NCBI GenBank assembly: GCA_028386065.3
Contig: JAKUCV010005543.1
Span: forward strand, 57,960 to 121,959
From: Turnera subulata
Lineage: Eukaryota > Streptophyta > Magnoliopsida > Malpighiales > Passifloraceae
Length of the DNA stretch: 64,000 nt
Reading direction: 5' to 3'
Shown: positions 12,649-60,900 of the stretch, piece by piece
How the letters are laid out: every line of letters starts with the position of its first letter
Position numbering within the stretch: position 1 is the stretch's first letter
Translations under genes and position numbers: made by a program
The notes under the pieces: model-generated
What the model was told of the DNA's origin: nothing
Seen by the model: the letters and a program-made list of their open reading frames with translations, nothing else
Databases searched by the model: none

Positions 12649-12690
12649 GTTCTACCCCACTTAAGAAAATTTCGTCCTCGAAATTACAAG
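12649..12690 (-). promoter_or_regulatory. Polypurine tract region of the Tekay element
   Basis: On the element strand the sequence just before the 3' LTR reads AAGTGGGGTAGAAC then TGTAACGCC. A purine-rich run directly abutting the LTR is where plus-strand DNA synthesis is primed in LTR elements. The preceding AATTTCGAGGACGAAATTTT segment is typical of Tekay/Del elements. Confidence 0.75.
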
Positions 12691-12699
12691 ATATGAAAA

Positions 12700-13080
12700 T
12701 CAGAACAGATGTGGATACTGCTCTCTCATTTGGGACTCAACCTCCCAAGTAGCCTCATTCGGAGAATGACGGCTCCATCTGAACCGAACCATAGGAATGG
12801 TACGACTCCTCAATTGCAGCACCTCCTGAGCCAAAATCTCCACCGGCTCCTCAACATAGGTCAAATCCTCAGAAATCTCCACCTCTGTCGGGGATATAAC
12901 ATGACTAGGATCAGACCGGTAACGCCTCAACATTGAAACGTGGAATACATCATGTATGCGCGACAGCTCCTCCGGTAAAGCCAACCTATAGGCCAGCGGA
13001 CCAATACGCTCCATGATCTCATAAGGACCAATATAACGAGGGCTCAACTTGCCCTTCCTCCCAAACCGGATAACACCTCT
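12700..13080 (-). pseudogene. Integrase C-terminus and chromodomain of the Tekay element
   Basis: The frame reads a [20 protein letters not shown] block, then [14 protein letters not shown], then a chromodomain-like end: [33 protein letters not shown] and a short tail. The aromatic and acidic positions fit the C-terminal chromodomain of plant chromoviruses, which targets integration to marked chromatin. It is in the same frame as the integrase at 13081-13557 but separated from it by a TAG (13081-13083), most simply a Trp codon changed by one transition. Confidence 0.9.
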
Positions 13081-15214
13081 CTAGGGAGCAACACGGAGGA
13101 AAACTCCGTCACCTACACTGTACTCCATCTCCCGACGATGCTTATCAGCAAAACTCTTTTGCCGGTCCTGAGCAGCTCTCATGCACTGCTTAACCACCTC
13201 GATCTGATCAACAGTCTCCTGGACTAGATCCGGACCAACCACCTGTCTCAGACCTTCTTCATCCCAACAGATCGGACTACGACACTTCCGCCCATACAAA
13301 GCCTCATAAGGCGCCATACCGATTCTAGAGTGATACCCGTTGTTATAGGCAAACTCAACTAACGGTAATGTCTCATCCCAAGAACCACTGAAGTTGAGCA
13401 CACATGCTCTAAGCATATCCTCCAGTGTCTGTATAGTCCTCTCTGACTGCCCATCGGTCTGCGGATGGAATGCAGTACTGAAATTCATCTTAGTACCCAG
13501 AGCTGACTGTAAGCTCTTCCAGAAATGGGAAGTAAACCTCGGATCCCTGTCCGACACAATGGATAGTGGAACTCCATGTAGAGGGACAATACCGACACAT
13601 ATAACCTCGCCAGCTTATCTATTGTATCCGTCTGCTGAATCGATAGGAAATGAGCTGACTTGGTCAACCTATCAACAATGACCCAGATGGCATCATGTCG
13701 ACCCCGGGTTCTCAGTAACCCGATCACAAAGTCCATAGTGATATGCTCCCACTTCCACTGCGGAATGGTCAAAGATCTCAACTTGCCGGTAGGAGCCTGA
13801 TGCTCGGCTTTCACCTGCTGACAAGTCATATAACGAGCCACAAACTCCGCAACATCCTTCTTCATCCCGGGCCACCAATAATGACTCTTCAAGTTCTGGT
13901 ACATTTTGGTGCTACCCGGATGCATAGCATATGGCGCATTATGCGCTTCATCCATGATCCATCTCCTCAAATCATCGACATCCGGAACACACAACCGATC
14001 ACCGGTCATCAAAGCGCCATCCTCCCGGACATAGAAACTAGTACTCTCTCCACCGAGAGCCTTATCCCGCAACTCCGCTAGATGGGGATCACCATACTGT
14101 AACTCCATGATCTTATCCCGCAAGGTCGGCCGGATGCTCAAACTGGCAAGCAACGCCCCAGTAACACCCACCTCCAACAGTGCATCCAACGACCTCAACT
14201 CCACTAAGGAAGGTAAAGCATAAGAAACTGAGTCCTCATCCGCAGAAGCCACTCTCTTCCGGCTCAATGCATCTGCAACAACATTGGCCTTGCATGGATG
14301 GTACTCGATAGTATAATCATAATCCTTCAGAAGTTCAATCCAGCATCTCTGCTTCATATTAAGCTCCCTTTGGGTCATGATGTACTTCAAACTCTTGTGA
14401 TCCATGAAAATCCAACACTTCTCACCGTATAGATGGTGTCTCCAAATTTTCAAAGCAAAGACCACCGCAACTAACTCCAGATCATGGGTCGGATAGTTCC
14501 TCTCGTGAGTTCTCAACTGCCTGGAGGCATAAGCAATCACCCGACCCTCCTGCATCAAAACACATCCCAAGCCCAAACCAGAAGCATCACTAAACACCGA
14601 GTACTCCACTCCGGGTCTCGAAATAGTCAAAACCGGTGCAGAAGTCAACCGACTCTTCAACTCCTCAAAACGCTTCTGGCAACGGTCATCCCACACAAAA
14701 GTACAGTCTTTCCTCAACAGCTTAGTCATGGGACCCGCTATCAAGGAAAAACCCTCAATGAACCTCCGGTAATAACCAGCAAGTCCAAGGAAACTCCGTA
14801 TCTCAGGTACATTCTTCGGTGGCTCCCAATCCATGACTGCCTTAATCTTGGCCGGATCCACCTTAATACCCTCACCGGACACAATATGCCCAAGAATGCG
14901 ACCTCATCCAACCAAAACTCACACTTGCTGAGCTTGGCATAAAGCTGCTCTTCTCTCAACCTCTGCAGAACCTGTCTCAAGTGGTCCTCATGTTCGGCCT
15001 TACTACTCGAGTAGACCAGAATATCATCAATAAACACTACCACAAACCGATCCAGAAATTCATGGAAGACCTGTTGCATCATACACATGAACACTGTCGG
15101 TGCATTCGTCAGCCCAAATGGAACAACCACAAACTCATAATGACCATACCGAGTGCGGAATGCAGTCTTTGGTATGTCTTGCTCTGCAATCCGAACCTGA
15201 TGGTAGCCAGATCA
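13081..15214 (-). pseudogene. Reverse transcriptase (2nd half), RNase H and integrase of the Tekay element
   Basis: From 15211 downward the frame shows the RT core [12 protein letters not shown] (catalytic FIDD at about 15040), the [10 protein letters not shown] segment, then a 1-base frameshift near 14900. After it come [14 protein letters not shown], RNase H ([34 protein letters not shown]) and integrase ([33 protein letters not shown]). A second frameshift near 13580 is followed by [33 protein letters not shown] and [11 protein letters not shown]. The 15212-15214 TGA follows KIDL, where an Arg codon is usual. All domains are present, but the broken frame means no full polyprotein can be made. 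Confidence 0.95.
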
Positions 15215-16198
15215 CAGGTCAATCTTCGAGAATACGGATGCACCCTGCAACTGATCGAACAAGTCATCGATCCTGGGCAAAGGGTACTTGTTCTTCATAG
15301 TCACCCTGTTCAACTGCCTATAGTCCACACACATCCGCATACTGCCATCCTTCTTCTTCAAAAACAAGACCGGGGCACCCCAAGGTGAGATGCTCGGTCT
15401 AATAAAACCCTTATCCAACAACTCCTCCAGTTGTTTCTTCAACTCCTGAAGTTCTGTCGGAGCCATTTTGTAGGGCGGTATAGATATAGGTGCAACTCCC
15501 GGTACCAAGTCAACTGTATACTCCACCTCCTGCTCCGGAGGCAACCCTAGTAGATCATCAGGAAATACATCAAGAAACTCCCGAACAATCGAAATATCCT
15601 CCACTCCAGGTACTTGTACCGAAGAATCGACCACATGAGCTAGAAAAGCATCACAACTCTCTCGGAACATCCTGAAAGCTTGGATGGCAGAGATACAACA
15701 CGCCATTAGGGCTCTTCGCTCTCCAACGAACACCAATCTACGCCCCGACAGAGAAGACAAAGAAACTTCCCTGGCCCGACAATCAACTACTGCCTGGTGT
15801 CTAGACAACCAATCCATGCCTAAGATAACATCAAACTCTCCCAAGTCCATGACAGCAAGATCAGAAGGGAAACTCTCACTATCATACTCTATCGATACAT
15901 CTCTACAAACTCGATCAACAACTACTATGTCACCAGTGGGTAACCGGACTCTCAGGGGTCTACCAAGATTATCATCTTCTATGTTATGAGTGGTCATGAA
16001 TGCACGTGATACAAAAGAGTGTGTTGAACCTGGATCAACTAAAGCATGTGCATATTGACCAAAAACCATAAATGTACCTGCTATAACCTCTGAAGCATCA
16101 GCAGCCTCCTCCCGGGTGATGGCATAAACCCTAGGAGTTGCAGCAGACTGAGTCGCACCCCCGCAATTCGGAGCTCCAGAATCCCCACGACCTCGACC
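15215..16198 (-). pseudogene. Aspartic protease and first half of RT, Tekay element
   Basis: The frame continues directly from gag. It carries the protease active site region [13 protein letters not shown] (Asp-Pro-Gly-Ser, the substituted triad common in plant chromoviruses), then [17 protein letters not shown], and the start of [50 protein letters not shown] and [14 protein letters not shown]. It stops at 15212-15214 inside RT. No frameshift separates it from gag, so the family encodes gag and pol in one frame. Confidence 0.92.
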
Positions 16199-17242
16199 CT
16201 ACTGTCCGCCACCCCTGCTCGGCCCAGAAGAAACAGCACCACTAGCCACAAAACTCTGTACTGTATACTGTGAACCATTGCCACCACTATCCTTAATCCA
16301 CTTGTAGCAAGATGACTTCTGGTGTCCCGACTTGTTGCAATACCAACATGTACCCGAGAATCGTGCTGAGAAACCCCGTCCCTGAGATCCAGACTGATAG
16401 GACCGTCCTCCCGAGGATTTTCCTGGTCCACCCTGATAACTCTGTCCTCTGGACTTCTTCGAATCTCGGTAAGAAGAACCCTGTCCACCAGAATAATCTG
16501 CATCTCCAGCATCAGAATACTGCCTCATCTGTCCTGAAGCTGATGACTGCTTCCTCTGCTTGGCTGTCCGAGCCTCCTTCCCGATCAACTGAACTCTCTT
16601 AGCATCAAAAGCAGCCTCACAAACTGCCTCCCAAGTCTTGTGCCCTCCACCAGCCACAGCTAACGCCAACTCTGTACGTAAGCCGTTAACAAACCGCCTA
16701 CACTTAGTCACCTCATCGGGCACAAACTCCCTAGCATAAGAGAGAAGAATGCTGAACCGGATCCTAAAAGCTGATACTGACTCATCTAGTCCCTGCTTCA
16801 CCTCAAGAAACTGCTTCTTCTGCTCCTCCAAAAAACCAACAGTGAGAAACTCCTTGTAGAATTTCTCCTTGAAATCCTCCCATGGCATCTTCACAGGCTT
16901 CGGTAGGTTGGCCACAAGTTTCTGCCACCATGTCAATGCATATCCCGAGAACTTGTCTGTCGCAAATCGAGCCCTCTGCTCAGGTGCACAGGTGAACTTC
17001 TCCAGAACATTCTCCACCTAGCGAAACCAATCATCAAACTCTTTGGATTTGCCCTCTTCACCAGAGAATTCCTTCACTGCTGACTTATCAATGTGTTTGT
17101 AACCACTCTCCATACCACCTGCCGCAGCAGGTGCTACCGGCTGGGCACCCTGCTGCTGCTGAAACTGCTGGAACTGTGGCCACTGCAAAAAGGCCTGATA
17201 CTGCTGGAACGCTGGGTCCACAACAGGTGGTACGGGTGGCAC
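16199..17242 (-). pseudogene. Gag of the Tekay element, with two internal stops
   Basis: ATG at 17242 opens a Pro/Gln-rich N-terminus. The capsid-like core follows (FATDKFSGYALTWWQKL, MPWEDFKEKFYKEF) and then a Gly/Ser/Arg-rich tail with one CCHC zinc knuckle (CWYCNKSGHQKSSC) that would bind the genomic RNA. A TAG at 17018-17020 falls where capsid sequences normally have Trp (after DDWFR), and another TAG at 16199-16201 interrupts a Gly/Gln/Arg run. Each is explained by one transition, so the ancestral frame was probably continuous from 17242 to RT. Confidence 0.92.
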
Positions 17243-17504
17243 AACATTCTATTCTCCTCCACCTGCAGCATTATTCCCTGCTGCATCATCGTTCCCCTAA
17301 CCAATGGGAACCTGCATCACCGACACATTGTCGGAGACATGAGTAACAGCGTCATCCTCAGCATTGTGCTGCCCCTGGTGATCCATATCAACGCCTATAT
17401 GAATGCAAATGAGTCAAAAACACTTTTAAAGTCATAATCCAGAAACAGGCTTAAACACAGAAATCACTTTGAAAACAAAGTTTAAAACACTTTTAAAACC
17501 AAGA

Positions 17505-17530
17505 ATCTGAAGCTTGCTCCGCTACCAAGC
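17505..17530 (-). promoter_or_regulatory. Primer binding site of the Tekay element
   Basis: On the element strand the sequence right after the 5' LTR reads GC TTGGTAGCGGAGC. Plant initiator-Met tRNA primes from TGGTATCAGAGC, so this is that site with two substitutions. The same variant core, GGTAGCGGAGC, follows the 5' LTR of the unrelated gag-only element at 49446. Confidence 0.7.
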
Positions 17531-20500
17531 TGAAACACCCGTGTCCCAATTTTACAATAAAATACTTAAACACAAGGAATTTACCAAAATGCCCCTAAAA
17601 CCCATGACACGAAATCCAATACCAAAACATTATCCAAAAATCTTAATAATCCGAGATGTCATAAAGAACAAAAATAAAACAAATCGGCTAAACAAGCCAT
17701 AAGTCAACCCGGCATCCAGCCGATACATCATCAGGTGTCAAATCCCGGCAACCCGCCGATAAAACAATCAAAATCAAAGATGGCATCTCAACGAAATCCA
17801 ATGCAGCGGAAGATAAGGATAAAAATAAAACAAAAGTAGAAGATGATATGCAAGTCGGCTCTATGGATCCAACCGGGAGAAGAAGCACAGCTACCTGCTG
17901 GGATAACCACGTCCGTACTTTGGAAAGGTAGAAAGAGACTGCACGCTAACTAAGAGTCTGAAAAACAACGGTGGCGATTATGTGAGTCGCCTACTCACTG
18001 AGCAGTATAAATCTAGTTATATAGGTGTGCAAGGCAAGTTCGAAAGGAAAGTAGAGAAACAAGACAAGCATGCAAACATACAATAACCAGTACTAACATG
18101 CCAACAACATACAAGCAAACAGTTTATCATTTTTCATCTGCTGTGTGTTAAGTTTTCTTATTATATTTTTTTATTCACGGCCCCCTACTGTGTGCGTCGA
18201 GCTCGGTCCCGTCTCATGAGACAACTAGGCATAAGCCCAAACTAACCAGGCATGAAGCCCAACCATAACCATAAAGAGAGAGAGAGAAAGAGGGAGATAG
18301 AAAGGGGAAGGTAGAAGGAGGAAGGCAGAACCAGTCATCACAGACCCATATGCTAAACCGCATATACCATGCTATTCCGCATGCAAACCCGAGGGGTATC
18401 ACTTCCCGCTCGAACCAACCGGTCATCAGCATACAGTAGCCTATCTTCTACTGTACATTATTCTTATTCATAAATTATAAGTTCATGTGTGCCAAGGGTT
18501 GTGATTTAACAGGGTTGTGTGAATTATCAACTCAATCAAGTATCCGGGTCTCCGACCCACAGTACATCACACGAATCACCCAAAATCACTCCACATGCTA
18601 TATTCCATAACAATCTAAAAGTCATGCTCATCCAGCAAATAGTAACACATAGGCACACAATACGGATCACAGCATGTTAGCAAACAGGGCATGCAACTCA
18701 AACAAACCAATCTAACAAGCTCATGCATACAAACATAAAAAAAGACTTATAAAGTCACCTCAGCGACGATTATCCTATGGAGCTTTCCCCAAGACAGATC
18801 CTCCAGCTCCCGAGGTATTACCCGTGTCTGAATACCGACACACACAATAAATTACAAACAATTACAAAGCCGTGCATGCATGATATTAATATGTTCAACT
18901 GAATAGAACTTGACCCAATCTACCCGGTTAAGTAATTTCAGGGTCTAAGCCCAAAAGGGTAACTCCAAAGAGTTTGGGACCTAAGGTGCCCTGGGCTTAA
19001 GCCCAACTAAGTCCATAAATAATTTCTCGGGCTTATGGCCCATTTATTATGTCCTTAACGAGTTCCCGGGCCTAAAGCCCATCTAAGTCCAATACCGAAT
19101 CCTGGGCCTAAAGCCCATTATGAAGTTGGGCTTAAAGCTCGTTACCCAAGTCCAAAGATTATCAGTTTAAGTCATAAAATCTCATTTGCCAGACCTGAGC
19201 CCGATTTAGACTAATTTCCATTTAAGAATTTTACCCAAGCCCGAGTTACCGTCCTAAAGGTTCTACCCGCGTCGGACAAACCGGTCACAAGCTACTCGCT
19301 TCCAACTCTCGGTTTCTACTATATATAAAATACAATTAATACAACCCAATTCAGAACACATAATACATGCCATGAGTGCACAAATTATACACCAAGGTAA
19401 TACCGTTAAATGCCGGAACAAAACCCGAACCTTTGTCGGAAAAATCCCAAACCTCGCCGGAAAATTCTCGAGCCTCGCCGGATTCCGGTCAACTCGCCGG
19501 AAAAACTCCACAACAACCAAGACAACAGCCACAACAATTCTGTCACAACCGGAATCATCCAATTCAACCACAAAATCCACTAACAAAGGAGAAACGAAAG
19601 AGATAATTATGCATCGCCGGAAATGCTTACCAGAATGCGAATCCTAGCTGCCAAAATCAAGTCTGGATCAAATCCTCAATCGAGAGCAGCCACAACAATT
19701 CTACTGCCTCAGTCTGGAACCAAACCCAACACCCGATTCATCTACACTATCCTCGCGGCATCACAATTCGTAATAGGAAAGGATTGAGGTAGTGAATCCT
19801 TACCCGGACTGGAGGAGGTGAACTGAGCCAATCTAGATTCGCCCGGATTTTTGTTGAACGAAAACAAAACCAGAACCCCGCTGCCATCGACCAAATCGAT
19901 CACAGACACGGCCCGCAACACACCAACCGACCACAGCAAAACCGTCACCGGCAGCAAACAACACACCACAACACAACCCCACACGCCCACCGAAAACCAC
20001 CAACACAAAACCCCCAACAACCCGTTCGATTAGAACCACAACATCAAGAATTTAAAAGCAATCGAATGGAAGCGGAGGAAAGGGAGGACAACCGCTTACC
20101 GGTTCAAGGTAGACACAATAGTGACGACACCCGAACTCGAACCTCGAGTTGTCTGCCCAGAACCCGTCAGAGGCCAAACCCGACCTCGGTCCTTGTGGTT
20201 CAGTCTATGGCGGCGGTAGCTCAAGGAAGAAAAAAAGAAGGTAAGGGTGATAGTGGCTAGGAGAAAAGAGAGGAAGAAGAAAAGAGAGGAAGAAGAAAAA
20301 GAAAAGAAGAGGGAGGGGAGAGAAAAGATAGAAAAGAGAAGGGATTTTAGGGTTGAGCCGGCCCCAGTTCAAAACGACGTAGTTTTGGACTGAGGCGCGC
20401 TCAACCCGACCTTAGTCAACTTTTTTTTTTCTAAGACTCCAAAACGACGTAGTTTCAGTGAAACTACATCAAAGTTTAATTCTCAACTCCGAAACCCGAT

Positions 20501-20670
20501 TAAACTCCAACGAAGGCTGTACCCATCATACTATCGACTTAATTCCGACATAACCAAGGTAAAATAATTTATTTCCTAGCCCAAAAATCCGGAAATTCCT
20601 CAAGGGCAAAAATTGGAATAAAAATTCCGAAAATTCCATAAATTAATTTATGAAAATCCGGGGCGTTACA
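17531..20670 (-). repeat. 5' LTR of the Tekay element
   Basis: It is 3140 bp with the same termini as the left LTR. Compared with that copy it keeps an extra segment (about 19449-20022) with repeated CTCGCCGG phrases. The element promoter should lie here, firing leftward. A CT-rich tract on the element strand (plus-strand GA-rich 20255-20345) and an intron-like layout are common in such LTRs, but no start site can be fixed by eye. Confidence 0.95.
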
Positions 20671-26388: not shown

Positions 26389-28583
26389 ATGGATAAATCT
26401 TGGATTGCAAAACCGAGGAACACCGACGAATACTTACTTGGTTTAGAATCCTTCTTAGATTTTGCCTTTAGAAATGCATCTCTTAGGAATAAAATTCAAT
26501 GTCCATGTCCTAAATGTGAGTTTTCAAAGTGGCAAACAAGAGATATAGCGTAAGAACACTTAATTTGCAAACCCTTTCCCCAAAATTATGTCACATGGTT
26601 TCTCCATGGTGAGTTGAATGAGGTAAATAATTTACCTAACATAGAGGTCCCGCAAGAGGCATCACATCCTCAAAATCCCATAGAGTTGTTAGTGAATGAA
26701 GCATTTGGAGACTTAGGGCATGAACATAATCATGAGAGTCCATCTAATGTAATGGATGAAGGAGAGATTTTTAAAGATGATCATGGTCCAGAATATAGGG
26801 ACTTCTTTGGTCTACTTAAGGATGGGCATGAAGCATTATTTGAAGGGTCAAAATATTCTAAGCTAGAGCTTTTGTTAAAGTTGTATCATATCAAGAGTTT
26901 GTGTAGGATCACAAACAAGGGTATGGGAATGATAATAGATTTGTTGAGAGAAGCCTTTCCATTCGCAAAACTCACTAAAACCTTTTATGAGGCTAAAAAA
27001 ACCATCAATAAACTTTCCTTGGGATATGATAGAATTGATGCTTGTCCAAATGATTGTATGTTGTACTGGAAAGCTGATGCTAATGAAGAGAAATATAAGG
27101 TTTGTAGTACAGCTAGGTGGGACCCCAAAAAGAAGAGCAAGACTCCAACGAAAGTTTTCCGTTATTTTCTATTAAAAAACGGTTGCAAAGGTTGTTTATA
27201 TGCTCTAAGACTGCAGAGTATATGAGATGGCATAAGGAGGAGAGTAATTCGGATGGAATTTTGAGGCATCCTAGGGATGGTGAGGCATGGAAGAAATTCG
27301 ATGCAAGTTTCCCTGAATTTGCATCGGAACCTAGGAATGTTAGATTAGGTCTAGCAAGTGATGGTTTTAACCCTTATGGAAACATGAGCACTTCTCATAG
27401 CATTTGGCCTGTTGTTTTGTTCCCTTATAACCTTCCTCCTTGGTTGTGCACCAAACAACCAAATTGTATCCTTTCAATGATCATTCCAGGACCACAACTA
27501 CTCGGGAATAATATTGATGTGTACCTTCAGCCTCTTATTAAAGAGTTGGCTGAGTTGTGGAGTGAGGGGATAGAGACCATTGATGCATCTAACAACAAAA
27601 TGTTCACGATGCGGGCTGTACTTATGTGGACTGTTAGTGATTTTCCAGGTCTGGGAATTTTATCCGGGTGGAATACTCATACCGGGTGTGCTTATCCTGT
27701 TTGTAATTTTGATACTGAACCATGTTATCTGCCCCACAGTAGAAAGTGATGTTTTCGCGGTCATCATCACTTCTTAGGAAGGAACCATAGGTTTAGATTG
27801 ATGAGGGTTCGGTTTGATGGCAATACGGATGAGAGGAGCCCGCCTAAGAAGTTATCTGGGGTAGACATTTTACGGCAAGTAGATCATATCAATACTACAT
27901 TCGGGTGACAACCAGCAGAAGAGAATGGACAGAAGAAAAGGCATAGACGTAGAAATGTTGATGAGGGTGAAACTCAACAATGGAAAAAGAGAAGCATTGT
28001 CTTCCAACTTCCATATTGGGAAGTAAACTCTTTACATCATAATTTAAACGTAATGCATATGGAGAAAAATATATTTGACAATGTCATACATACATTGCTT
28101 AATGACAAAGTCAAGTCAAAGGATCATCTCAAAGCTACAAAAGATCTGCAAGATATGGGTATAAGGCGTGAACTTTGGTCAGATGAGAATGGGCGGTTCA
28201 AATCTGCCCTCTTCACAATTCCAACCTCTAAAAAGGCGACATTCCTCAAAACATTAAAGAATGTATCGATGCCAGATGGTTATTCTAGCAACATTTCCCG
28301 TTGTATTGATCTCAACCAAAAGAGGATTTTTGGCTTAAAAAGCCATGACTGTCACATCATCATGGAGCAGTTGTTACCTATAGCCATTCAAAATTTGTTG
28401 CCAAAGGAGGTAGTTGCGGTCTTGGTTGAGTTTTCTTCATTTTTTAGACTCATTTGTCTAAAAAATTTGAGCATTTCAGACTTGGAAAAGTTGCAAGAAC
28501 GAATTGTGCAGACCCTTTGCCATTTAGAAATGTTATTCCCTCCATCGTTTTTCACTGTGATTCGGCTAAAGAAATCTGTGTAA
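26389..28583 (+). pseudogene. CACTA (En/Spm) TNPD/TNP2-type transposase, degenerate
   Basis: ATG at 26389 begins MDKSWIAKPR, followed by RNKIQCPCPKCEFSKW, the Cys-rich N-terminal domain of CACTA transposases. Later blocks are YSKLELLLKLYHIKSLCRIT and CPNDCMLYWKAD, then, after a frameshift near 27170, FDASFPEFASEPRNVRLGLA, DGFNPYGNMSTSHSIWPVV, DFPGLGILSGWNTHTGCA, NLNVMHMEKNIFDNVIHTLL and DCHIIMEQLLPIAI. The last recognisable block, HLEMLFPPSFF, is the start of the C-terminal DUF4218-type domain, so the protein is cut short. In-frame stops lie at 26551, 27747 and 27907. The enzyme would bind the ends and cut the element; this copy cannot. Confidence 0.92.
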
Positions 28584-43600: not shown

Positions 43601-44684
43601 CAGCATCGTCGCATCCACATCACTGCAATATCCAACCAAAAATATATAATCAACCAAATAGCATAATACTGTCCAATATGCCTAACTAAACTTTTTAACC
43701 CAGAAATAGCGACAACAGTAACGTTCACAATTTATTAAAACTAATGAGTAAATTGTACCCTCATAAAATTCAGAATCCCAAAACTTAATCAAACTTATTT
43801 AGATCTTGACCGTAATAAAAACCTGGTGTAGTATACTGTACTGCATTGACATTAATAGATCGAGCAGTACGATGATACATGACAGTGTCATTTCGCAGTT
43901 ACTTTTAGAATCGAGGCCACATTTCTGTTTATTGCCACAAACTTTAATGATTTTTGTTATGTTAGTCCATATCGTTAACGTTCATCGAATAGAGCTAAAT
44001 CCGATCTCTGCAATCCCAGATCTGATAGAAATTAGAACCAAACGGAGCTCTGTCAAGACAAAACCCTAACCTTTCCATTCTAAGATTGAGCCTAAGCAGT
44101 GCAGGGCACTTCTGAAGCAAGGATCCAACAAACCCGAGCTGCGCCCTGGGTGGAACTCTAAACCTGAGCTCCTCCGCCGCCCTCCACAACCTCCTCGTCG
44201 TGTCTCTCCAACTCTTACACACCCCAGCCGCCGCCAACAGGCTCGCCGGCGGCAGCCTCCTCAGCACCTCCCACATGCAGCTCGCAGGGAGCAGATCCGA
44301 CTCCGACTCGTCCATCTCCGGCTCGGGAGAGTCGCAGCGAAGGTCGATATCGTCGAAGGAGAGCGCGCGGGGGAGGCGGGAGTGCTGCTGGCGAGTAGCA
44401 GCCGGGGGCCGGTAGGAAGGGGCGGAGGGGGTGGCGGTGGATATGGCAGAGGTAGGGGTGGCGGCGGAGGCGGCGGCCGGAGAGGCGGCGGATGGAGGAG
44501 GGAGGTGGCAGACATGGCCCTTCTTCGGGAGGCCGCAGCGGCCGCAGTTGTAGCTGCCGCGGTGTTTCTTAAGGGGGCGTTGGGGGAAGTCAAAGGAGGC
44601 GGCGGGGGAGAAGGAGGCGGTGGAGCCGCCGGGGGTGGCGGGGGAGATGTGGGGGAGGGCTTGGTTGGCGGTTTCGTGGTGCAT
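40682..44684 (-). CDS. FBL17: F-box/LRR-repeat protein 17-like, SCF substrate receptor
   Basis: Eleven exons join in frame on the minus strand: 44684-44071, 43622-43521, 43053-42909, 42744-42560, 42337-42233, 42121-42024, 41929-41709, 41626-41560, 41454-41369, 40995-40897, 40765-40682; total 601 aa. The N-terminus has RGSYNCGRCGLPKKGHVC (42-59, a Cys/His cluster characteristic of FBL17 proteins) and an Ala/Pro-rich linker. The F-box is at about 131-171 (LLPASCMWEVLRRLPPASLL then VCKSWRDTTRRLWR). LRRs fill about 185-560, with phrases such as CPNLEVMEIS, CPSLKEISLDF, LELLDLSG, LRKLSLWGCSGLD and CPELGDLNLNSC. KKRKR (586-590) is a likely nuclear signal. In Arabidopsis FBL17 works in an SCF complex that degrades KRP inhibitors of CDKA, allowing S phase in the male germline and in somatic cells. 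Exon 10 (99 bp) starts with a donor-like GTAAGT. Confidence 0.95.
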
Positions 44685-44860
44685 TTCTTTTCTTCTTTTT
44701 TTTTTTTTGTTGTGTGTGTGTGTTTGTGATTTGTGTTAGGTGAAGCAAAGTGGATGAGTGAGTGAGTGAAAGGGGGGGAAGTGAAAGTGAGTGAAATTGG
44801 GGGAGAAATAAATGGAGGGAAGGAAGGAATTAGAGGGGGGGGAAGGCTGGAAAAGGGAAG

Positions 44861-46534: not shown

Positions 46535-46539
46535 CAAAA

Positions 46540-46976
46540 TGTCAAGGACACAGGATGGCGCAGCGGAAAAACACCCAATATCCGTGCGGCTCTAGGTTCG
46601 CAACGATACCTAAATCAGTCTAAGCAAACAAAATTATAAGAATACAGTATTTAGGAGAAATCTCCGTAGTATTATTGCTCAAAGAATACAACAACACACA
46701 CAGCCCAACGCCTCCCCTCTCATGCTATTTATACAATAACACTTGAGTGCTCTCCAAGTAATCCTAAGAAAACCCACTCACACTAGGTTTCTTATCCCCC
46801 ACTCCTATTCTTTATGGACAAGGATTAGTCAATTCCAAGCCCACAACGATACAAGCCCATTACATAATTAAGTGACTAGTTTAATTAAATAACAAACCCC
46901 TCACCATCAATCCAATATGCACACGGATTTGGCCTACACTAGGACTTTGTGTGCCTAAAAATCCCAATGCGTGACA
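46540..46976 (-). repeat. 3' LTR of the gag-protease-chromodomain element
   Basis: It is 437 bp, TGTCAAGG...GCGTGACA on the plus strand. On the element strand the adjacent purine-rich GGTGGTGGAGAA, immediately before TGTCACGC, is the likely polypurine tract, and the gag stop codon (46988-46990) nearly touches it. Confidence 0.9.
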
Positions 46977-46987
46977 TTCTCCACCAC

Positions 46988-48970
46988 CTATTCAGGCAAT
47001 GCCCTCATTGCCTTCCGTAGATAGGAAGCCACTTGCCGTCCAAACCGATTCAGCTTGTCCTCGTGCACCCATCTCGCTTCAGGTTGATCCCTCCACTTGA
47101 CTAGATACTCGAACACAACAGCATCCTCCGTACATCGAACAACCCGGTGTGCCTTTATCCACATGCGAGGTGGTTGCCTATCCATAGGAACTTCATCTTC
47201 CTTTGGTATTGCCTTTACCTCTGCCTCGTTTGGTTTTGCCACACTAGTTTGCCCCGTTTCCAAAGCCATCTTTGCCGCTGATATTGCTCCCAAGGTTGAT
47301 TCCCGCATAGTGCTCAAGACGCAGCGTGGCTACACACCATCAAGTACAATCGAACCCTCTTTGCAAAAGATCAACGCTTCATTTTTATCCAAGAACTCCA
47401 TGCCAAGTACCATAGGATAATCATCAAGCTCCACCACAGTAAACTCTAGCCGTCCACACCAGTTACCAATGCGAACCTTCATGTCATATGCTAACCCCAC
47501 AATAGGTTGTGCCTCCAAGTTCACCGTTTTCATTGTAGTTGTGCTCTCTTGCGGCATGTACCGAATCCCCAATTCTCTGGCCGTCTTGGCTTGTAGAAAA
47601 TTGTGAGTCGCACCTGTGTCAACCAAAGCATCCAACTCCGTACCTCCAACTTGAACTCGAACGAACATCCGTCCCTTCTTGCTTGGCTTAGCCGCAGCAT
47701 CTATGGCTCCGAGTCTTTCTAGTGGTGCCATTCTGACACTATGTGGACCCTTGCACAGAAAACATTCCCACGGTTTGTTATCATCACCTTTGCCTCCTTT
47801 CCCCAATTTGGCGTCACTTGACTTGGTTGATGATGTATAACTCCCGAACTTAGCCTTCTCTCCACCACCTTTAGAATCGCCATCCTGGTGATTAGAGCTT
47901 TTCAGCTTGTCTCCCTTGTAATCTGCTAAGGACTCCGCCACTCGAATAGCATCGACTAAGGTCTCAACTTCACGTCTATCGACCTCCATTTGTGCCCAAT
48001 CTTGCAAGCCTCCAACGAACATGTCCAACGCTTCAGAATCTGGCATGCGTGGAATTTTGAACTTCAGCTCTTGAAATTCCTTCACGTACTTTCGAATACT
48101 ATCCCCCTGCTTAAGGCTGCGCATTTTCCTTCTCGCCTCCTTATCAGCATACTTGGGATAGAACTATGCTTTCAGCTCTGTCACGAACTCGTCCCACGAA
48201 AGTCTCTTCCTTTCCGCCTCCAAGGTCTCTAGTCTTTGTTTCCACCAAAGCAAAGTAGCACCCTTGAAGTACCTAGAAGCAATTTGCACTTTCCGGTCCT
48301 CATCTGTAATCCTCATACCTGCAAAGTATTGATTCACACTAAACAAAAAACTGTCAAGCTCCTTAGCCACTCGCGTTCCATGATAGGTATTTCGCTTAGG
48401 TATGTCAATTTTAGGTAGTGCGTGTGCAGATGCACCTCCCTCTCCACTTGCAAGCACTCTTCTACATAGAGTCAGCTCTTCCTCCATGCGTATATTCCTG
48501 GCCTTCAGTTCTCGTAACTCCTGGCCTTGCACATCGAGTTGCTTCGACTGCTCATCAATCTGTTCTTGCAATTCAGCGATTGCCCTCTTGAACGATTCCT
48601 GTAGCTTGTCGAACTCCTCCCTAAGTGTTTGAGACCCTACATTCACTTTCGTGTGAAGGTCTGTGAGCTGTAGCCTCAACACCTGAACTTCATCCGTTCT
48701 ACCTTCACCGCTAGCTTCAAATTCATCAACTCGCTTCTCGAGGCCATTCAACCGTTCTTGAATTTTCTCACAGCGTTGTTGAAGGATCGGAACAGCAGCT
48801 TCCACTGTCGGATTTCCCGTCTTCGCTGGACCCCTACTCTTGGATCGGCCCCTATCAGCCTTCTTCTTCGGGTCAGCAACCTTCGGGTCATCCTTATTCA
48901 GATCAGACATCTCTTGAGTAGTAGTCTCACTCGTCTCTTGTTCCCCAAGAGGCGGCTTCTCTTTCGTCAT
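46988..48970 (-). pseudogene. Gag - protease - chromodomain polyprotein with two stops
   Basis: One frame of 661 codons runs from ATG at 48970 to TAG at 46988-46990, broken only by TAGs at 48164-48166 (codon 269, most simply from CAG) and 47330-47332. Order: a Lys/Arg-rich N-terminus; a long coiled coil (about 60-170); a capsid-like core (PKIDIPKRNTYHGTRVAKEL, YFKGATLLWWKQRLETLEAE, then KMRSLKQGDSIRKYVKEFQE after the stop); a degraded zinc knuckle (CFLCKGPH near 403, final Cys missing); protease LDALVDTGATHNFL (Asp-Thr-Gly near 451) with YPMVLGMEFLDKNEALI; and a chromodomain-like end (AVVFEYLVKWRDQPEARWVH near 617) with a short tail. The uninterrupted frame across the missing pol region shows the deletion was in frame or selected. 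Confidence 0.88.
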
Positions 48971-49167
48971 CCTTAACCAAAGATCTCAACACAAATCGCA
49001 ATTGGCAAAAAAGGAACAAAACAATTCGGGACCAAACAACAAATCACAGGAACCAAGCCAAACAAATCCACAAGCTCAACAAAATCCCACAAGTCGACTT
49101 TTATAATTAATAAAATCAAACCTGACTTTGAGGAACCCTCCTTGTCCAGCAACCCACGCTTCTAATT

Positions 49168-49420
49168 TGCTTCTGCCCACCAGCAACACCAAAAAGGCGC
49201 GCCCAGAAAACGCACCCCTGCCCAGTCGAAGGCGCGCCCAGCAATGCACCCAGGTTAGGTCGGTGGCGCGCCCCAGCAGCGCACCAAGGCTAGGTCGGTG
49301 GCACGCCCTAGCAGCAACGAATGCGCACCCTGCCAGCGACGAAGGCGCACCCACCAGCGACGAAGGCGCACCTTCCAGCGACGAAGGCGCCCCTGCCAGA
49401 AACCAGAAATCTTCTGCGAA
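49168..49420. repeat. Minisatellite-like leader of the gag-only element
   Basis: Between the primer binding site and the gag ATG, a GC-rich stretch carries about four copies of CCAGCGACGAAGGCGCACC (about 19-27 bp period, 49335-49395) preceded by looser copies of TAGGTCGGTGGCGCGCCC. It lies in the untranslated leader, where packaging signals usually sit. Open frames on both strands over it are products of the repeat. Confidence 0.75.
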
Positions 49421-49429
49421 TAAACACGA

Positions 49430-49445
49430 ACGCTCCGCTACCACT
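49430..49445 (-). promoter_or_regulatory. Primer binding site of the gag-only element
   Basis: Directly after the 5' LTR the element strand reads AGTGGTAGCGGAGCG. The core TGGTAGCGGAGC differs at two bases from the site complementary to initiator-Met tRNA and is identical to the Tekay element's site. Confidence 0.7.
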
Positions 49446-49882
49446 TGTCACGGACACAGGATGGCGCAGCGGAAAAACACCCAATATCCGTGCGGCTCTA
49501 GGTTCGCAACGATACCTAGATCAGCCTAAGCTAACAAAATAATAAGAACACAGTATTTGGGAGAAATCTTCGTAGTATTATTGCTCAAAGAATACAACAA
49601 CACACACAGCCCAACGCCTCCCCTCTCATGCTATTTATACAATAACACTTGAGTGCTCTCCAAGTAATCCTAAGAAAACCCACTCACACTAGGTTTCTTA
49701 TCCCCCACTCCTATTCTTTATGGACAAGGATTAGTCAAGTCCAAGCCCACAACGATACAAGCCCATTACATAATTAAGTGACTAGTTTAATTAAATAACA
49801 AACCCCTCACCATCAATCCAACATGCACACGGATTTGGCCTACACTAGGACTTTGTGTGCCTAAAAATCCCAATGCGTGACA
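49446..49882 (-). repeat. 5' LTR of the gag-protease-chromodomain element
   Basis: It is 437 bp, the same length as the left copy and differing at about 10-11 positions, mostly in the first 130 bases. It contains CTATTTATACAATAA on the plus strand near 49632, a possible TATA-like stretch in either orientation. Confidence 0.9.
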
Positions 49883-49886
49883 AAAA

Positions 49887-53396: not shown

Positions 53397-55636
53397 TCAA
53401 AAGCGCAGGATATTGACCAAGTCTAAACAATGTTCAAACTTGGCCCTAGTCGCCACCTTGGTCAGCATATCTGCAGGATTCTCCGAAGTCAAAACTTTTT
53501 GGAGAAGTATCTCTTCTTCTTTGAGAATCTCCCTCACCAAATGATAGTGAAGATTGATATGCTTCGTCCGTGCATGAAAGACTTGATTCTTTGCCAAATA
53601 AATAGCACTCTGACTGTCAGAATATACTACAAGTTGTTTCTGACCAACTCCCAAGTCTTTTAGCAACCCATGAAGCCAAATCGCCTCCTTTACAGCTTCT
53701 GTAATAGCCATATGCTCTGCCTCTGTAGTAGAAAAAGTCATCGTTGATTGTAAAGTGGACTTCCAACTAACCGGGGCTTTTGCTAATGTGAACAAATAGC
53801 CCGTTGTCGATCGGCGCTTATCCAAATCTCCTGCATAGTCTGAATCATAGTATCCGACCACTCCTTGACCAAGTGATTCATCCTGCTCAAACATTAAACC
53901 AACATCTACGGTATCTTTGAGATACCGAAGAATCCATTTCACAGCTTGCCAATGACCTCTGCCAGGATCATGCATGTATCTGCTCACAACACTAACAGCT
54001 TGTGAAATATCTGGTCTTGTACACACCATCGCATACATCAAGCTTCCAACCGTATTGGCATATGGGATCTTCACCATGTACTCTCGTTCTTCTTCTGTCT
54101 GTGGAGATAACTGGCTGCTAAGTTTCAAATGAGGGGCAAGTGGAGTACCTAGAGATTTTGATTCCTCATTCATACCAAAACGTTGTAGTACTTTCTTTAA
54201 ATACTGCTTTTGTGTCAGCCAAAACTTGCCTCTCTCTCTGTCCCTGCTTATCTCCATCCCGAGAATCTTTTTGGCTTCTCCCAAATCCTTCATCTCAAAC
54301 TCTTTACTCAACTAAGCCTTTAGCTTGTCAATTTCAACTTGGCTCTTTGCAGCTATCAACATGTCATCAACATATAAGAGTAGGTAGATGTAGGACCCAT
54401 CTTGAAGTCTGCTCAAATACACACAATGGTCGTATTTACTCATTGTGTACTTCTGACCCAACATAAACTTATCAAATCGTTTGTACCACTGCCTTGGAGA
54501 TTGCTTCAATCCGTACAACGACTTGTCTAGTTTGCACACCCAATTCTCTTTACCAGCAACTTTGTATCCATCTGGCTGAGTCATATAGATATCATCTTTC
54601 AAGTCACCGTGTAAGAACGCGGTCTTTACATCAAGTTGAGCTAGCTCCAAATTCAACTGTGCTACCAAGGCCAACAGAATTCTAATGGAGGAATGCTTCA
54701 CAACTGGAGAAAATACTTCATTATAGTCAATTCCTTCCTTCTGAGCGTAGCCTTTAGCCACCAATCTTGCCTTGTAGCGAATATCATTCTTGTTAGGAAA
54801 TCCTTCTTTCTTTGCAAATACCCATTTGCATCCAATTGCCTTCTTTCCCTTCGGTAGTTGTGTCAACTTCCATGTCTTGTTCTTCTGAAGAGATTTCATC
54901 TCCTCCTCCATAGAATCTTTCCATCTATTACTTTCAGAACTTCGAATGGCTTCTGAAAAAGTAGAAGGAACATCATCAATGACTGGAAGTGCATAGGCCA
55001 CCATTTCAATAAGACGTTCTGGTTTTCGACTTTCTCGTCTTGTTCTTCGAACGGCAATTGACTCCATCTGCTGTGAAGGTTCTTGGGTTGGAACCTCTTC
55101 TTCATTAGACTCTTCTTCTATCAATTGAGAGTCACTATTTGTGTTTCTAGCTGGGATCACCATGGTCTGCTCAAGCTCCACCTGCTTTGGAACACACTCC
55201 ATCTGCTGTGAAGTATCATCAGCTTCTTGATTCACCTTAGTCAACATGGCAGATTCATCAAAGGTAACATCTCTGCTGATAACTGTCTTCTTTATTTCTA
55301 GACACCAAAGACGGTATCCCTTTACTCCAACATTTAGACCCATAAACAGAGCCTTCTTTGCCTATGGATCCAACTTTGATTCATTCATATGATAGTATGC
55401 GATAGAACCAAAGACATGCAAAGAATCATAATCCATAGTAGGTTTCCTAGACCAAACTTCCAAAGGGGTCTTGCCATCTAAAGCAGATGATGGCAACCGA
55501 TTAACAAGATGTTGAGCATATGTCACAGCCTCAGCCCAAAAATTTCTGCCTAGCCCAGCATTAGACAGCATACAAAGAACTTTCTCCACCAATGTCTTGT
55601 TCATACGCTCTCTGTAAGTATTCGGGCATGCCAACT
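53397..55636 (-). pseudogene. Copia-1 pol: integrase end, RT and RNase H
   Basis: From 55636 downward: integrase C-terminal sequence (ERMNKTLVEKVLCMLSNAGL, FWAEAVTYAQHLVNRLPSS, DSLHVFGSIAYYHM), a TAG at 55362-55364, then a linker and RT (KTWKLTQLPKGKKAIGCKWV, GIDYNEVFSPVVKHSSIRIL, LDVKTAFLHGDLKDDIYMTQ, LYGLKQSPRQWYKRFDKF, catalytic YVDDMLIA). A second TAG at 54312-54314 is followed by RT end and RNase H (MKDLGEAKKILGMEIS, YANTVGSLMYAMVCTRPDI, STTEAEHMAITEAVKEAIWL) to a natural stop at 53397. Apart from two stops the frame is intact, so this is a relatively young copy. Confidence 0.93.
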
Positions 55637-57041: not shown

Positions 57042-57923
57042 ACTAAAGCCAATCATCCATGTATCTAATACCAATGGATGTTGCATGACCATCATGCTTC
57101 CGCTGTGTGAAAGGCTCAGCCAAAAGATCTGCTACAAAGTTCTCAGAAGGAACTTTGTACAGCCTCAGTTGTAGAGTTGGCAACTGTATCTTACTTAGAA
57201 CTCTTCCAGCTCATAGCACCATCTCCAAGACAAAACACATAACCTGATTGCGATCTAAAGTCATCCCTGTCAGTTTGGAAGCTAGCATCTGTGTAACCCT
57301 TTACAACAAGCTCATCCATGCTTCCGTAAACCAGGAATACATCCTTAGTCCTTCTCAAGTACTTAAGGATGTTCTTAACTGCTGTCCAATGACTCTCACC
57401 CGGATCAGCTTGGTATCTACTTGTGACACTCAAAACATAAGCGACATCCGGTCGAGTACATAGCATGGCATACATGATAGATCCTATTGCCGAAGCATAA
57501 GGGATCTTACTCATCCGCTCTCTCTCATTCGATGTACTAGGACATTGATTCTTTGAGAGAGAGATGCCATGTGACATGGGCAAGAACCCTTTATTGGAAT
57601 CTTGCATGCTAAACCTCTTTAGCACCTTGTCAATATACGTACTCTGACTTAGCCCGAGAAGCCTTTTGGATCTATCTCTATAGATCTTTATACCTAACAC
57701 ATAGGCAGCTTCTCCTAAGTCCTTCATCGAGAAATTCTTCCCCAACCAAGTCTTTACAGACTGTAGTGTCGAAATATCATTCCCAATGAGTAGAATGTCG
57801 TCAACATATAACAACAAGAAAACAACAGTGCTCCCACTAACCTTCTTGTAAACACATGGTTCATCTTCATTTTTAATGAAACCAAACTCTTTGATTACTT
57901 CATTAAAACGATGATTCCAACTC
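57042..57923 (-). pseudogene. Copia-2 pol, RT end and RNase H with internal deletion
   Basis: Reading from 57923: SWNHRFNEVIKEFGFIKNED, catalytic YVDDILLIGND, MKDLGEAAYVLGIKIYRDRS, YASAIGSIMYAMLCTRPDVA, DFRSQSGYVFCLGDGAMSW, then ANSTTEA. Immediately after, with a frame change, comes YKVPSENFVADLLAEPFTQ and IRYMDDWL with a stop at 57042-57044. The central RNase H segment (normally about 60-70 residues with catalytic acids) is absent, so this copy has a deletion near 57165. Confidence 0.9.
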
Positions 57924-60900
57924 TGAAACACCCGTGTCCCAATTTAACAATAAAATACCAAACTCAAGGAAATTACCAAAATACCCCTGAAACCCGGGAC
58001 ACGAAAATCAATATCAAAAACAATATCCAAATCCTCAATAAAACGAGATGTCAAAATGAACATAATAATCCGGCTTAACAAGCCACAAATCAACCCGGCA
58101 TCCTGCCGAAACATCATCAAAACATAAACCCGGCAACCCGCCGAAAATGTAATCCAAAATCAATAGACATCTCAAATAAGAAAACCAATGCAGCGGAAAA
58201 ATCAAACGGAGTGAAAGTAATAGAAATAAAACAACATGCATGTCGACTCTATGGATCCAATCCGGGAGAACAAGCACGGCTACCTGCTGGGATGTCCACG
58301 TCCGTACTCCGGGAAGAGAAGAAAGTGTCTGCTCGCTATCTAAAGTCTGAAAAACAACGTTGGCGATTATGTGAGTCGCCTACTCAGTGAGCAATATATA
58401 TCTAATTATGAGAGTGTGCAGATCAGGTCCGAAGGGAAAGCAGAGTAACAAAACATGCATGCAACATACAACAATCAGTACTAACATGCCAACACAATCA
58501 ACAAACGATTCATTAGTTTCCATCTGTTATGAGTTAAGTTTCTCTTATTACTTTTTATTATTCAGGGCCCCCTACTGTGTGCGTCGAGCTCGGTCCCGTC
58601 TCATGAGACAACCAGGCACGAAGCCCAAATAAACCAGGCACGAAGCCCATATAAACCAGGCACGAAGCCCAACATAACCATAGAGAGAGAGAGAGAGACA
58701 GAGAGAAAGAGGGAGGTAGAAAGGGGGAGGTAGAAGGAGGGAGGTAGAAACCGGTCATCACAGACCCACATGCAAATCTGCATAACACTTGCCAATCCGC
58801 AAGCAAACCCGAGGGGTATCACTTCCCGCTCGAAACAACCGGTCATCAGCACACAGTAGCCTAACTTCTACTGTACATTATCTTTATTCACAGATTATGA
58901 GTTTATGTGTGCCATTAGCTGTGATCTAACAGGGTAGTGTGATAAAGGCATCTCAATCAATTAACCGGGTCTCCGACCCACAACACATCACACAAGCACC
59001 CAAAATCACATCACATGTTATAATCCATAACAAATCCAACATCCTGCTCATAAGCAAATAATACAGCAAATAATACACTTAGGCACACAATACAGATTAC
59101 AGCATGTTAGCAAACAAGCATGCAACTCAAACAAACCATTCCAACGAGCTCATGCAAACAAACATAAAAAGACATATAAAGTCACCTCAACGACGATTGT
59201 CCTGTGGAGTCTTTCCCAAAACCGATCCACCAGCTCCCGAGGTAACACCCGTGCCTGAATACCGGCACACACAACAAATTACAAAACAATAATCACAACT
59301 GTGCATGCATGGTACCTATATGCTCAACTGAGTTAAACCCGTCCCAAGTTAGTCGACTATGTAATTCCCGGGTCTAAACCCGACTTAAAGTTCTCATCAC
59401 CAAACTCCGAGTAACGGGACCTAAGGTTCACCGGGCTTAAGCCCAACTAAGTCCAAAGTAATTCCCGGGCCTATGGCCCACTCATTATATCGTTTATGAA
59501 TTCCCGGCCTAAGTCCAATCTAAGCCCAATATTAATTTCCCGGCCTAAGTCCAATCTAAGCCCAATATTAATTTCCCGGGCCTAAAGCCCACTTCCTTAA
59601 GTCCTTAATTAACCAATAAAAGAATTGGGCCTAAAGCCCGTTACTTAAGGTTCAATATCAATCCGAGTCCAAGTCCATCCCGGCCTAAGGTTCTACCCGT
59701 GTCGGTATTTACCGGCCTAAGGTTCTACCCGTCTCGGTTTCCACTAATCATAATTAAATACAAATCCCAATTCCGAATTAGTACATGCCGTGAATGAATA
59801 CAAGTTACACATTAAAGTATACCGTTAAGTGCCGGAAATAACACCCGAGCCTTCGCCGGAAAATTCCCGAGCCCTCGCCGGAAAATTCCCGAGCCTTCGC
59901 CGGATTCCGGTGACCTTGCCGGAATTCACCCCAAAATCACCAAATCAACCCCAACAAATCTGCCTACACACATCAACCATCCGTTCAACAATCAAACAAC
60001 ACAAATCTAAACAAAAGAAGTAAGAAGAGTCGCATTCCTTACCCCGGAACCCACACAGATTCGCCGAGAACCACCCTCTGCCCGGAAACACACACGGCAA
60101 TCCGAGCCACAGTAACAAAAACGAACCTCCTTCCTCAACAATTGCTGCCGAACCCCCACAAACGAACCTCCTGCCGGAAGCAACACGCAGCAACAACACA
60201 AACACCACACAGGCCCGACCACCACACCACGAACCCACCGTCGTCCGACCACCCCAAGCCAACAACAACGAAACCAACAACACAGTTAAACCCAAAAACC
60301 CGATTAACACACCGGCCCGAAAAAGAACAAAAACAAAAAAAAGACAACAAGAGAGAAAGGAAAGAAAGAGAGGGGGGTCGGGCTTACCCGACTACGGCGG
60401 CGGTGACGGCCTGCAACACGTGCAGCGGCGGCTCGACGGGGAGGAAGAGGGGGAGAAAAGGAGAGGCGGCCGGAGTGAAAGGAGAGGACAGAACCCGAAT
60501 CGGGAGAGGAAAAGAAGAAGAGGGAGGAAGAGAGGAAGAGAAGAGGGAGAGGAAAAGAAGAAGAGGAAGGAAGGTAGGAGGGAGGCGGCGGGAGAGAGGT
60601 GAGGAAGAAGAGAAGAAGAGAAGAGAAAAGAAGAAAGAAAGAAAAGAAAAGTGAAAAGAGAAAAGAAAAAAGAATGGGAAAAGAGGGGTGACGGCTAGGG
60701 TTTGGCCGCCCTAGTGAACGACGTGTCGTTCCACTAGGCGCGGTCAACCCCCGGTCAACACGTTTTTGTTTTTTTTTTTTTTTTTTTTTGTGTAAAGCCA
60801 AAACGACGTAGTTTCGAGAGAACCCACGCTAAACCTCACGTTTCACCCCGATTTCGAATCCGTTCTCCACGGGACCCGAACCATGAACCATACCAACTCA

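What the first reader, a model, noticed from the sequence alone, without database searches (positions are those of the whole stretch)
46540..49882. Compact retroelement coding only gag, protease and a chromodomain in one frame
The interior runs gag, aspartic protease (Asp-Thr-Gly) and a chromodomain-like end in one 661-codon frame with two point stops and no RT, RNase H or integrase. A random pol deletion would rarely leave the frame intact with the chromodomain next to the protease. The two LTRs are equal in length and about 97-98% identical, so the pol-less form moved recently. TR-GAG elements are described, but keeping protease plus a targeting chromodomain suggests a parasite that makes its own particle and steers integration while borrowing RT and integrase.
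Basis: partly seen in the sequence, partly recalled or inferred. Interest (0 to 1): 0.75.

Follow-up and report, generated by a model that had tools for sequence, protein, structure and literature searches.

The report
Pol-less Gag-protease-chromodomain plant retroelement
A short plant jumping element has lost its copying and insertion enzymes but kept a shell protein, a protein cutter and a chromatin-reading domain; database relatives, mainly in water lilies, suggest that this stripped-down layout arose more than once.

Summary
Window 46540-49882 (minus strand; Turnera subulata) is a 3.3-kb element with two 437-bp LTRs (427/437 identical). One 661-codon frame, broken by two in-frame stops, codes Gag, a DTGA protease and a C-terminal chromodomain, with no RT, RNase H or integrase. 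The chromodomain is below Pfam's cut-off but folds as one (AlphaFold; the 50 listed PDB matches are all chromodomain or chromoshadow proteins, best E 0.12). This copy is dead: two stops, and a zinc knuckle lacking its last cysteine.

Whether it is a family in Turnera could not be tested: 14 genome searches did not complete. The architecture does recur. Of 187 listed relatives, 11 carry protease plus chromodomain without RT or integrase core, one of them this locus. Six Nymphaea models share one junction. A Victoria cluster of 37 sequences has another, and an enzyme-bearing sister. A single origin is rejected on the protease tree (AU p 1.8e-5), so at least two origins. The Nymphaeaceae cases are gene models that I could not check on DNA.

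Best reading: a semi-autonomous chromovirus derivative, mobilised in trans, a variant of TR-GAG / GAG-Pro elements. Chromatin steering is plausible but unproven.

The parts
49446..49882 (-). 5' LTR of the element (437 bp)
   Evidence: 427/437 identical to the other LTR; TG...CA ends
46540..46976 (-). 3' LTR of the element (437 bp)
46536..46539 (.). AAAA flank, weak 4-bp target-site duplication with 49883-49886
   Evidence: read from sequence
49883..49886 (.). AAAA flank, weak 4-bp target-site duplication
49432..49443 (-). putative primer binding site, 2 nt from the LTR, similar to the initiator-Met tRNA type (10 of 12, consensus recalled)
   Evidence: sequence printed; consensus from recall; PMC3605345 passages say Beta chromoviruses use tRNA-Met with up to 3 nt spacing
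46977..46987 (-). purine-rich tract next to the 3' LTR, abutting the last stop codon
   Evidence: sequence printed
48164..48985 (-). frame piece 1: Gag N-terminal coiled-coil region and start of the Ty3-type capsid; ends in an in-frame stop
   Evidence: Ty3_capsid 0.0036, below its cut-off
47330..48163 (-). frame piece 2: rest of Gag capsid, damaged zinc knuckle (about 47726-47764), aspartic protease; ends in an in-frame stop
   Evidence: (Retrotrans_gag 3.9e-7; gag-asp_proteas 2.5e-14)
47387..47662 (-). aspartic protease domain, DTG at 47612-47620
   Evidence: residues 168-259 of piece 2
46988..47329 (-). frame piece 3: linker and chromodomain up to the last stop
47003..47164 (-). chromodomain fold (three strands and a helix)
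   Evidence: (residues 56-109)

Best explanation
A semi-autonomous derivative of a plant chromovirus. A deletion joined the linker after protease to the stretch just before the chromodomain, removing RT, RNase H and integrase but leaving one frame, Gag-Pro-chromodomain, with LTRs, primer-site-like and purine-tract sequences kept. The element's family supplied its own Gag and protease and was reverse-transcribed and integrated in trans by a related enzyme-bearing chromovirus (inferred). It was inserted about a million years ago (LTR divergence); this copy has since decayed (shown: two stops). The chromodomain, now on Gag-Pro instead of on integrase, may still let the co-assembled particle or processed product bind chromatin where the partner inserts (inferred, about 30%).
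For: LTR pair and pol-less interior. Frame open against 35.9 expected stops. Chromodomain by PDB sequence match, by AlphaFold and Foldseek, and by a home-made profile of relatives that excluded this locus (27.9 bits). An independent relative, P0004, is protease plus chromodomain (Chromo 1.1e-11) on a 2286-bp contig, too short to hold a pol between them. Six Nymphaea models share one protease-chromodomain linker, P0126 standing for a cluster of 8 sequences named from N. colorata. Victoria P0135 (cluster of 37) is Gag-Pro-integrase C-terminal domain-chromodomain; its protease region is 78% identical to the RT- and integrase-bearing Victoria protein P0151, and the two are sisters (99/94). One origin for the 10 chromodomain-bearing rows tested is rejected, AU p 1.8e-5, or 3.2e-9 without P0132. 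From protease motif to chromodomain core it is 171 residues here, 167 in P0043 and 177 in P0004, but 150 in P0132 and 276 in P0135; from that motif to the RT start it is 167-169 in P0009, P0011 and P0151, 143 in P0012.
Against: No second copy and no partner seen in Turnera: host genome search unanswered 14 times. The copy has two stops and a zinc knuckle lacking its last Cys, whereas the knuckle is whole in 8 of 10 chromodomain-bearing relatives checked (the other two start after it). Nine of the other ten relatives with this layout are gene models from two water-lily genera; N. thermarum models splice variably (8 of 187 proteins read Gag to chromodomain without detectable protease), so some junctions may be annotation. 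Within the main Nymphaea family the chromodomain is no better conserved (82%) than the linker (82%). Forms that keep only the tail after the chromodomain exist. The protease tree puts this locus on a very long branch (2.44), whose place is unsure.
Confidence: 0.65

Rival explanations
1. A one-off internal-deletion copy mobilised passively; the chromodomain is an inert leftover, kept because the 3' end of the element (purine tract, LTR) must be kept and the join happened to be in frame.
For: Single copy in the window; broken frame; chromodomain below the Pfam cut-off; tail-only relatives; chromodomain no better conserved than the linker in Nymphaea; chance of keeping frame is about one in three.
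Against: Same layout in multi-member groups of other genera with at least two origins; the fold is still predicted at block means of 82-94 pLDDT; no relative listed, apart from P0001 itself, exceeds 46% identity, so it is not a fresh deletion of any enzyme-bearing relative in those lists.
Confidence: 0.27
2. TR-GAG / GAG-Pro type element in the ordinary sense, whose only contribution is Gag and protease; the chromodomain is carried along without a role. (This overlaps the best explanation and differs from it only in the chromodomain step.)
For: GAG-Pro elements without RT and INT are known in wheat (RLG_Sabrina_SA, RLG_WHAM; PMC9744471 passages); Inpactor counts GAG, or GAG plus AP, as TR-GAG (PMC6022998 passages); chromodomain and linker equally conserved in Nymphaea.
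Against: Neither description, in the passages I read, includes a chromodomain; the chromodomain persists in frame in 11 of 187 listed relatives.
Confidence: 0.37
3. A domesticated Gag-protease-chromodomain host gene.
For: Annotated as a host gene, Tsubulata_014177, named chromo domain-containing in UniRef.
Against: Two near-identical LTRs, primer-site-like and purine-tract sequences, two in-frame stops; the gene model starts inside Gag, after the first stop, and skips the second.
Confidence: 0.03

Closest known systems
[quoted passage not shown] Chaparro et al. 2015, not held; described in PMC8704663 and PMC6022998, passages read)
   Same: LTRs, Gag (optionally with AP), no RT, RNase H or INT; one Arabidopsis TR-GAG was seen to transpose (PMC8704663 passages)
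   Different: Here a chromodomain follows the protease in the same frame
RLG_Sabrina_SA and RLG_WHAM of wheat, semi-autonomous GAG-Pro (PMC9744471, passages read)
   Same: GAG and protease kept, RT and INT absent, thought to be part of a complex with an autonomous element
   Different: No chromodomain mentioned for them in the passages read; grass elements of other families
RLG_Quinta with partner RLG_Cereba (PMC11302176, passages read)
   Same: GAG-coding non-autonomous partner of a chromatin-targeting Ty3 element
   Different: Quinta has GAG plus a domain of unknown function; targeting is ascribed to the CR domain of the integrase
Sunflower TR-RT, TR-RT-RH, TR-RH and TR-INT-RT elements (PMC9784723, passages read)
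   Same: LTR elements reduced to one frame with part of the proteins
   Different: Other protein combinations; the paper's main text has no occurrence of 'chromodomain'
Plant chromoviruses (Galadriel-like by recall of the Gag/protease type; PMC3350952, PMC3605345, PMC6317226, passages read)
   Same: Gag, protease and chromodomain sequence; purine tract beside the 3' LTR; Met-type primer site
   Different: Chromoviruses carry RT, RNase H and integrase, with the chromodomain on the integrase; here these are missing

Membership tests
LTR retrotransposon | two directly repeated LTRs with TG...CA ends | tested here: met
LTR retrotransposon | target-site duplication of 4-6 bp | tested here: inconclusive
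   AAAA on both sides, 4 bp in A-rich flank
TR-GAG | Gag present; RT, RNase H and integrase absent | tested here: met
TR-GAG | only GAG, or GAG and AP (Inpactor rule, PMC6022998 passages) | tested here: not met
   an extra chromodomain is present; the quoted rule does not mention chromodomains
TR-GAG / semi-autonomous | mobilised in trans by an autonomous partner sharing LTR ends, PBS and PPT | not testable with these tools
   The genome search unanswered
chromovirus | chromodomain at the integrase C-terminus | tested here: not met
   no integrase in the interior; the chromodomain follows the protease
chromovirus | Gag and protease related to enzyme-bearing elements of this kind | tested here: met
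   P0012 and P0151 align to Gag-protease and protease; clade with P0011, which runs into RT, at 98/99
Galadriel clade | placement by RT or integrase | not testable with these tools
   the element has neither; the clade name rests on recall
chromodomain | sequence profile above the curated cut-off | tested here: not met
   Pfam 17.8 bits against 25.1, E 0.0032
chromodomain | fold: three-stranded sheet with C-terminal helix | tested here: met
   the 50 listed of 462 PDB matches are chromodomain or chromoshadow proteins, best TM by target 0.76, best E 0.12

The most novel reading that the evidence does not exclude
Gag-Pro-chromodomain is a recurrent, selected design: plant chromoviruses repeatedly shed RT, RNase H and integrase while transferring the chromatin reader from integrase to Gag-Pro, giving satellites that build particles, borrow enzymes in trans and use the chromodomain to tether particles or complexes to the chromatin where their helper copies live and insert.
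Probability: 0.27. Interest if true: 0.75.

Novelty: new variant of a known kind. Interest (0 to 1): 0.5.

Why it matters
Non-autonomous LTR elements are usually sorted by what they lack. A pol-less form that keeps a chromatin reader, apparently more than once, would separate two roles of the chromodomain (integrase targeting versus particle or RNA tethering) and offer candidate helper-satellite pairs, such as Victoria P0151 and P0135, in which to test them. For this window alone the stake is small, since the copy is dead.

Tried and rejected
Own-genome search: 14 identical requests, none answered. Domesticated gene: disfavoured because of LTRs and stops. Single origin of all chromodomain-bearing forms: rejected by AU test. 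Turnera plus P0004 as one origin: not rejected (p 0.114); Nymphaeaceae forms as one origin apart from P0151: not rejected (p 0.324), so I claim at least two origins, not four. Long branches (this locus 2.44, P0132 1.71) weaken all placements. Chromodomain constraint inside the main Nymphaea family: no excess over the linker; against P0132 it is 45% against 23% for the linker, but P0132's Gag is 82% and its protease 46%, which looks chimeric. RT, RNase H or integrase remnants in the interior: none at E 0.01. Foldseek on the Nymphaea model P0134 listed 50 proteases and no chromodomain; its chromodomain part was read only from the AlphaFold strands and helices at residues 167-215. Literature: ten searches (two searches were for other questions), in which I saw listings with abstract starts and, for 13 papers, passages only. 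Nothing I saw there described a Gag-protease-chromodomain pol-less element, but the library lacks most subscription papers and Chaparro 2015.

Full report
What is there. Window 46540-49882 is an LTR element read on the minus strand. The LTRs are 437 bp each and identical at 427 of 437 positions, with TG...CA ends; the flanks share only AAAA. The divergence (K 0.0232) gives about 0.9 My at 1.3e-8 or 1.7 My at 7e-9 substitutions per site per year (rates recalled, the first also quoted in PMC5818461). After the 5' LTR comes a primer-site-like stretch close to the initiator-Met type (consensus recalled), and a purine tract abuts both the 3' LTR and the last stop codon. blastn finds no other copy of LTR or interior in the 64 kb.

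The host. The public protein P0001, Tsubulata_014177 of Turnera subulata, is 100% identical over 86% of the middle frame piece, so the window is from that plant (Passifloraceae). Its genome paper (PMC9862265, passages) reports 53.63% repeats.

The coding part. Between stops lie pieces of 273, 277 and 113 aa. The frame has two internal stops where shuffles of the same stretch give 35.9 stops on average and never under 15 in 1000. I kept the pieces apart. Pfam finds Retrotrans_gag (3.9e-7), the aspartic protease (2.5e-14) and, below their curated cut-offs, Ty3-type capsid and Chromo (0.0032). The C-terminal piece matches cpSRP43 chromodomains by sequence (2.9e-5 over two weak stretches). AlphaFold gives three strands and a helix at residues 56-109 (block means 82-94 pLDDT over residues 51-110); the 50 listed of 462 PDB matches are all chromodomain or chromoshadow proteins, though the best E-value is only 0.12. 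Its last 40 residues align to the end of a Hevea chromodomain (18 of 42 identical). Proteins with RT, RNase H and integrase from relatives match only Gag, protease and linker in the interior. The Gag zinc knuckle lacks its last cysteine.

Relatives. Three protein searches listed 187 distinct proteins; one search had 335 hits, of which the best 120 were listed, and one search scored only the 7997 candidates sharing most words. The set is also limited by the tool's length window and, by queries that contained a chromodomain, so the share of chromodomain forms is inflated. In a profile census 11 of 187 have protease and chromodomain without a match to my RT profile or to the RNase H/integrase part of P0151: P0001 (this locus), P0004, eight Nymphaea models and Victoria P0135. 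P0135 does keep the integrase C-terminal SH3-like domain (PF24626), which the census query lacked. Eight more, all N. thermarum, join Gag to chromodomain without detectable protease. 46 match the RT profile (14 of these also RNase H/integrase, 2 also chromodomain); that profile includes the linker before RT, so some of the 46 may hold no more than that. 9 have protease with RNase H/integrase, 2 protease with RNase H/integrase and chromodomain, 87 protease only, 24 none of these.

Junctions. P0004 sits on a 2286-bp contig, so no pol can lie between its protease and chromodomain. Six Nymphaea models (P0043, P0125, P0126, P0128, P0129, P0134) share one linker and a whole chromodomain; P0134 starts at the protease and its motif reads DMGA. 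P0127 has the linker with a cut chromodomain, P0132 a shorter linker. P0135 joins the protease linker to the integrase C-terminal region; its protease part is 78% identical to the RT- and integrase-bearing Victoria protein P0151. From protease motif to chromodomain core it is 171 residues here, 167 in P0043 and 177 in P0004, close to the distance from that motif to the RT start in P0009, P0011 and P0151 (167-169; 143 in P0012); P0132 (150) and P0135 (276) do not fit this spacing. So in three of these five the chromodomain sits about where RT began. An AlphaFold model of P0134 shows strands and helices of the chromodomain type at residues 167-215, but Foldseek listed only protease matches for that model.

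Origins. On a protease tree of 54 rows this locus groups with P0003, P0008, P0009, P0011, P0014 and P0032 (98/99), on a branch of 2.44 changes per column. Six Nymphaea models (P0043, P0125-P0129) group with P0135 and P0151 (98/97), with P0135 next to P0151 (99/94); P0132 lies apart, unresolved. Holding all 10 chromodomain rows together is rejected (p 1.8e-5; 3.2e-9 without P0132). Turnera with P0004 (p 0.114) and the Nymphaeaceae rows without P0151 and P0132 (p 0.324) are not rejected. So at least two origins; long branches make finer placement unsure.

How it most likely works. Shown: pol-less, LTRs close to identical, Gag-protease-chromodomain frame, now broken. Follows from the biology of LTR elements: its last insertion needed RT and integrase from elsewhere. 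Inferred: an enzyme-bearing chromovirus served as helper, Gag and protease were supplied by this element's own family, and the chromodomain, moved from integrase to Gag-Pro, tethers the complex to chromatin. The last step has the least support: the chromodomain is conserved no better than the linker inside the main Nymphaea family, tail-only forms exist, and plant chromodomains of this kind mostly lack aromatic-cage residues, their role being little known (PMC3350952, PMC6317226 passages).

Known kinds. TR-GAG elements and wheat GAG-Pro elements (RLG_Sabrina_SA, RLG_WHAM) are the nearest. RLG_Quinta with RLG_Cereba is a helper pair of this type, and sunflower has reduced elements with other protein sets. 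In ten literature searches nothing I saw described the Gag-protease-chromodomain form; that is weak evidence, since I read listings and passages only and the founding TR-GAG paper is not held. Hence 'new variant of a known kind'.

Limits. Host copy number and partner are untested. The Nymphaeaceae cases are gene models; N. thermarum models are spliced inconsistently, so the shared junction needs checking on DNA. The clade name Galadriel is recall.

Noticed in passing
P0146 (ENA, 846 aa) and P0148 (Cucumis melo, 988 aa): Gag-protease proteins whose RT is worn by substitution (no Pfam RVT_1 at 0.1, yet a relatives' RT profile scores 8e-24 and 2e-13) while the frame stays open; P0146 still ends in an integrase C-terminal domain and a chromodomain. 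A possible intermediate of pol loss.
   Followed up: partly
P0137, P0140, P0143, P0152, P0156, P0157, P0162, P0169 (Nymphaea thermarum): Eight gene models join Gag to a chromodomain without detectable protease; real deletions or splicing by the annotation.
   Followed up: partly
P0132 (Nymphaea thermarum): Gag 82% but protease 46% identical to the main family, so perhaps a recombinant, as reported for RLG_Quinta GAG (PMC11302176 passages).
   Followed up: no
P0013, P0025, P0139 (Citrus, cluster of 12): Gag-protease proteins that keep only the short Gly-rich tail seen after the chromodomain of P0004.
   Followed up: no
window 10001-19448: A larger Ty3-type element, minus strand, with about 1.9-kb LTRs 96.8% identical (10001-11925 and 17531-19448), protease, RNase H and integrase zinc domain in frames at 13485-16198 and RT by tblastn; related repeats at 20023-20670 and 57924-59871.
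   Followed up: no
window 53397-55361 and 57191-57943, minus strand: Ty1/copia pol fragments (RVT_2 at 53397-54311 and 57191-57943; 54312-55361 judged from its translation).
   Followed up: no
window 43995-44735, minus strand: F-box domain reading frame (F-box-like 1.5e-7), a likely host gene about 1.8 kb from the element.
   Followed up: no
window 27909-28583, plus strand: DUF4218 frame (3.3e-10), of the type seen in CACTA transposons (recalled).
   Followed up: no
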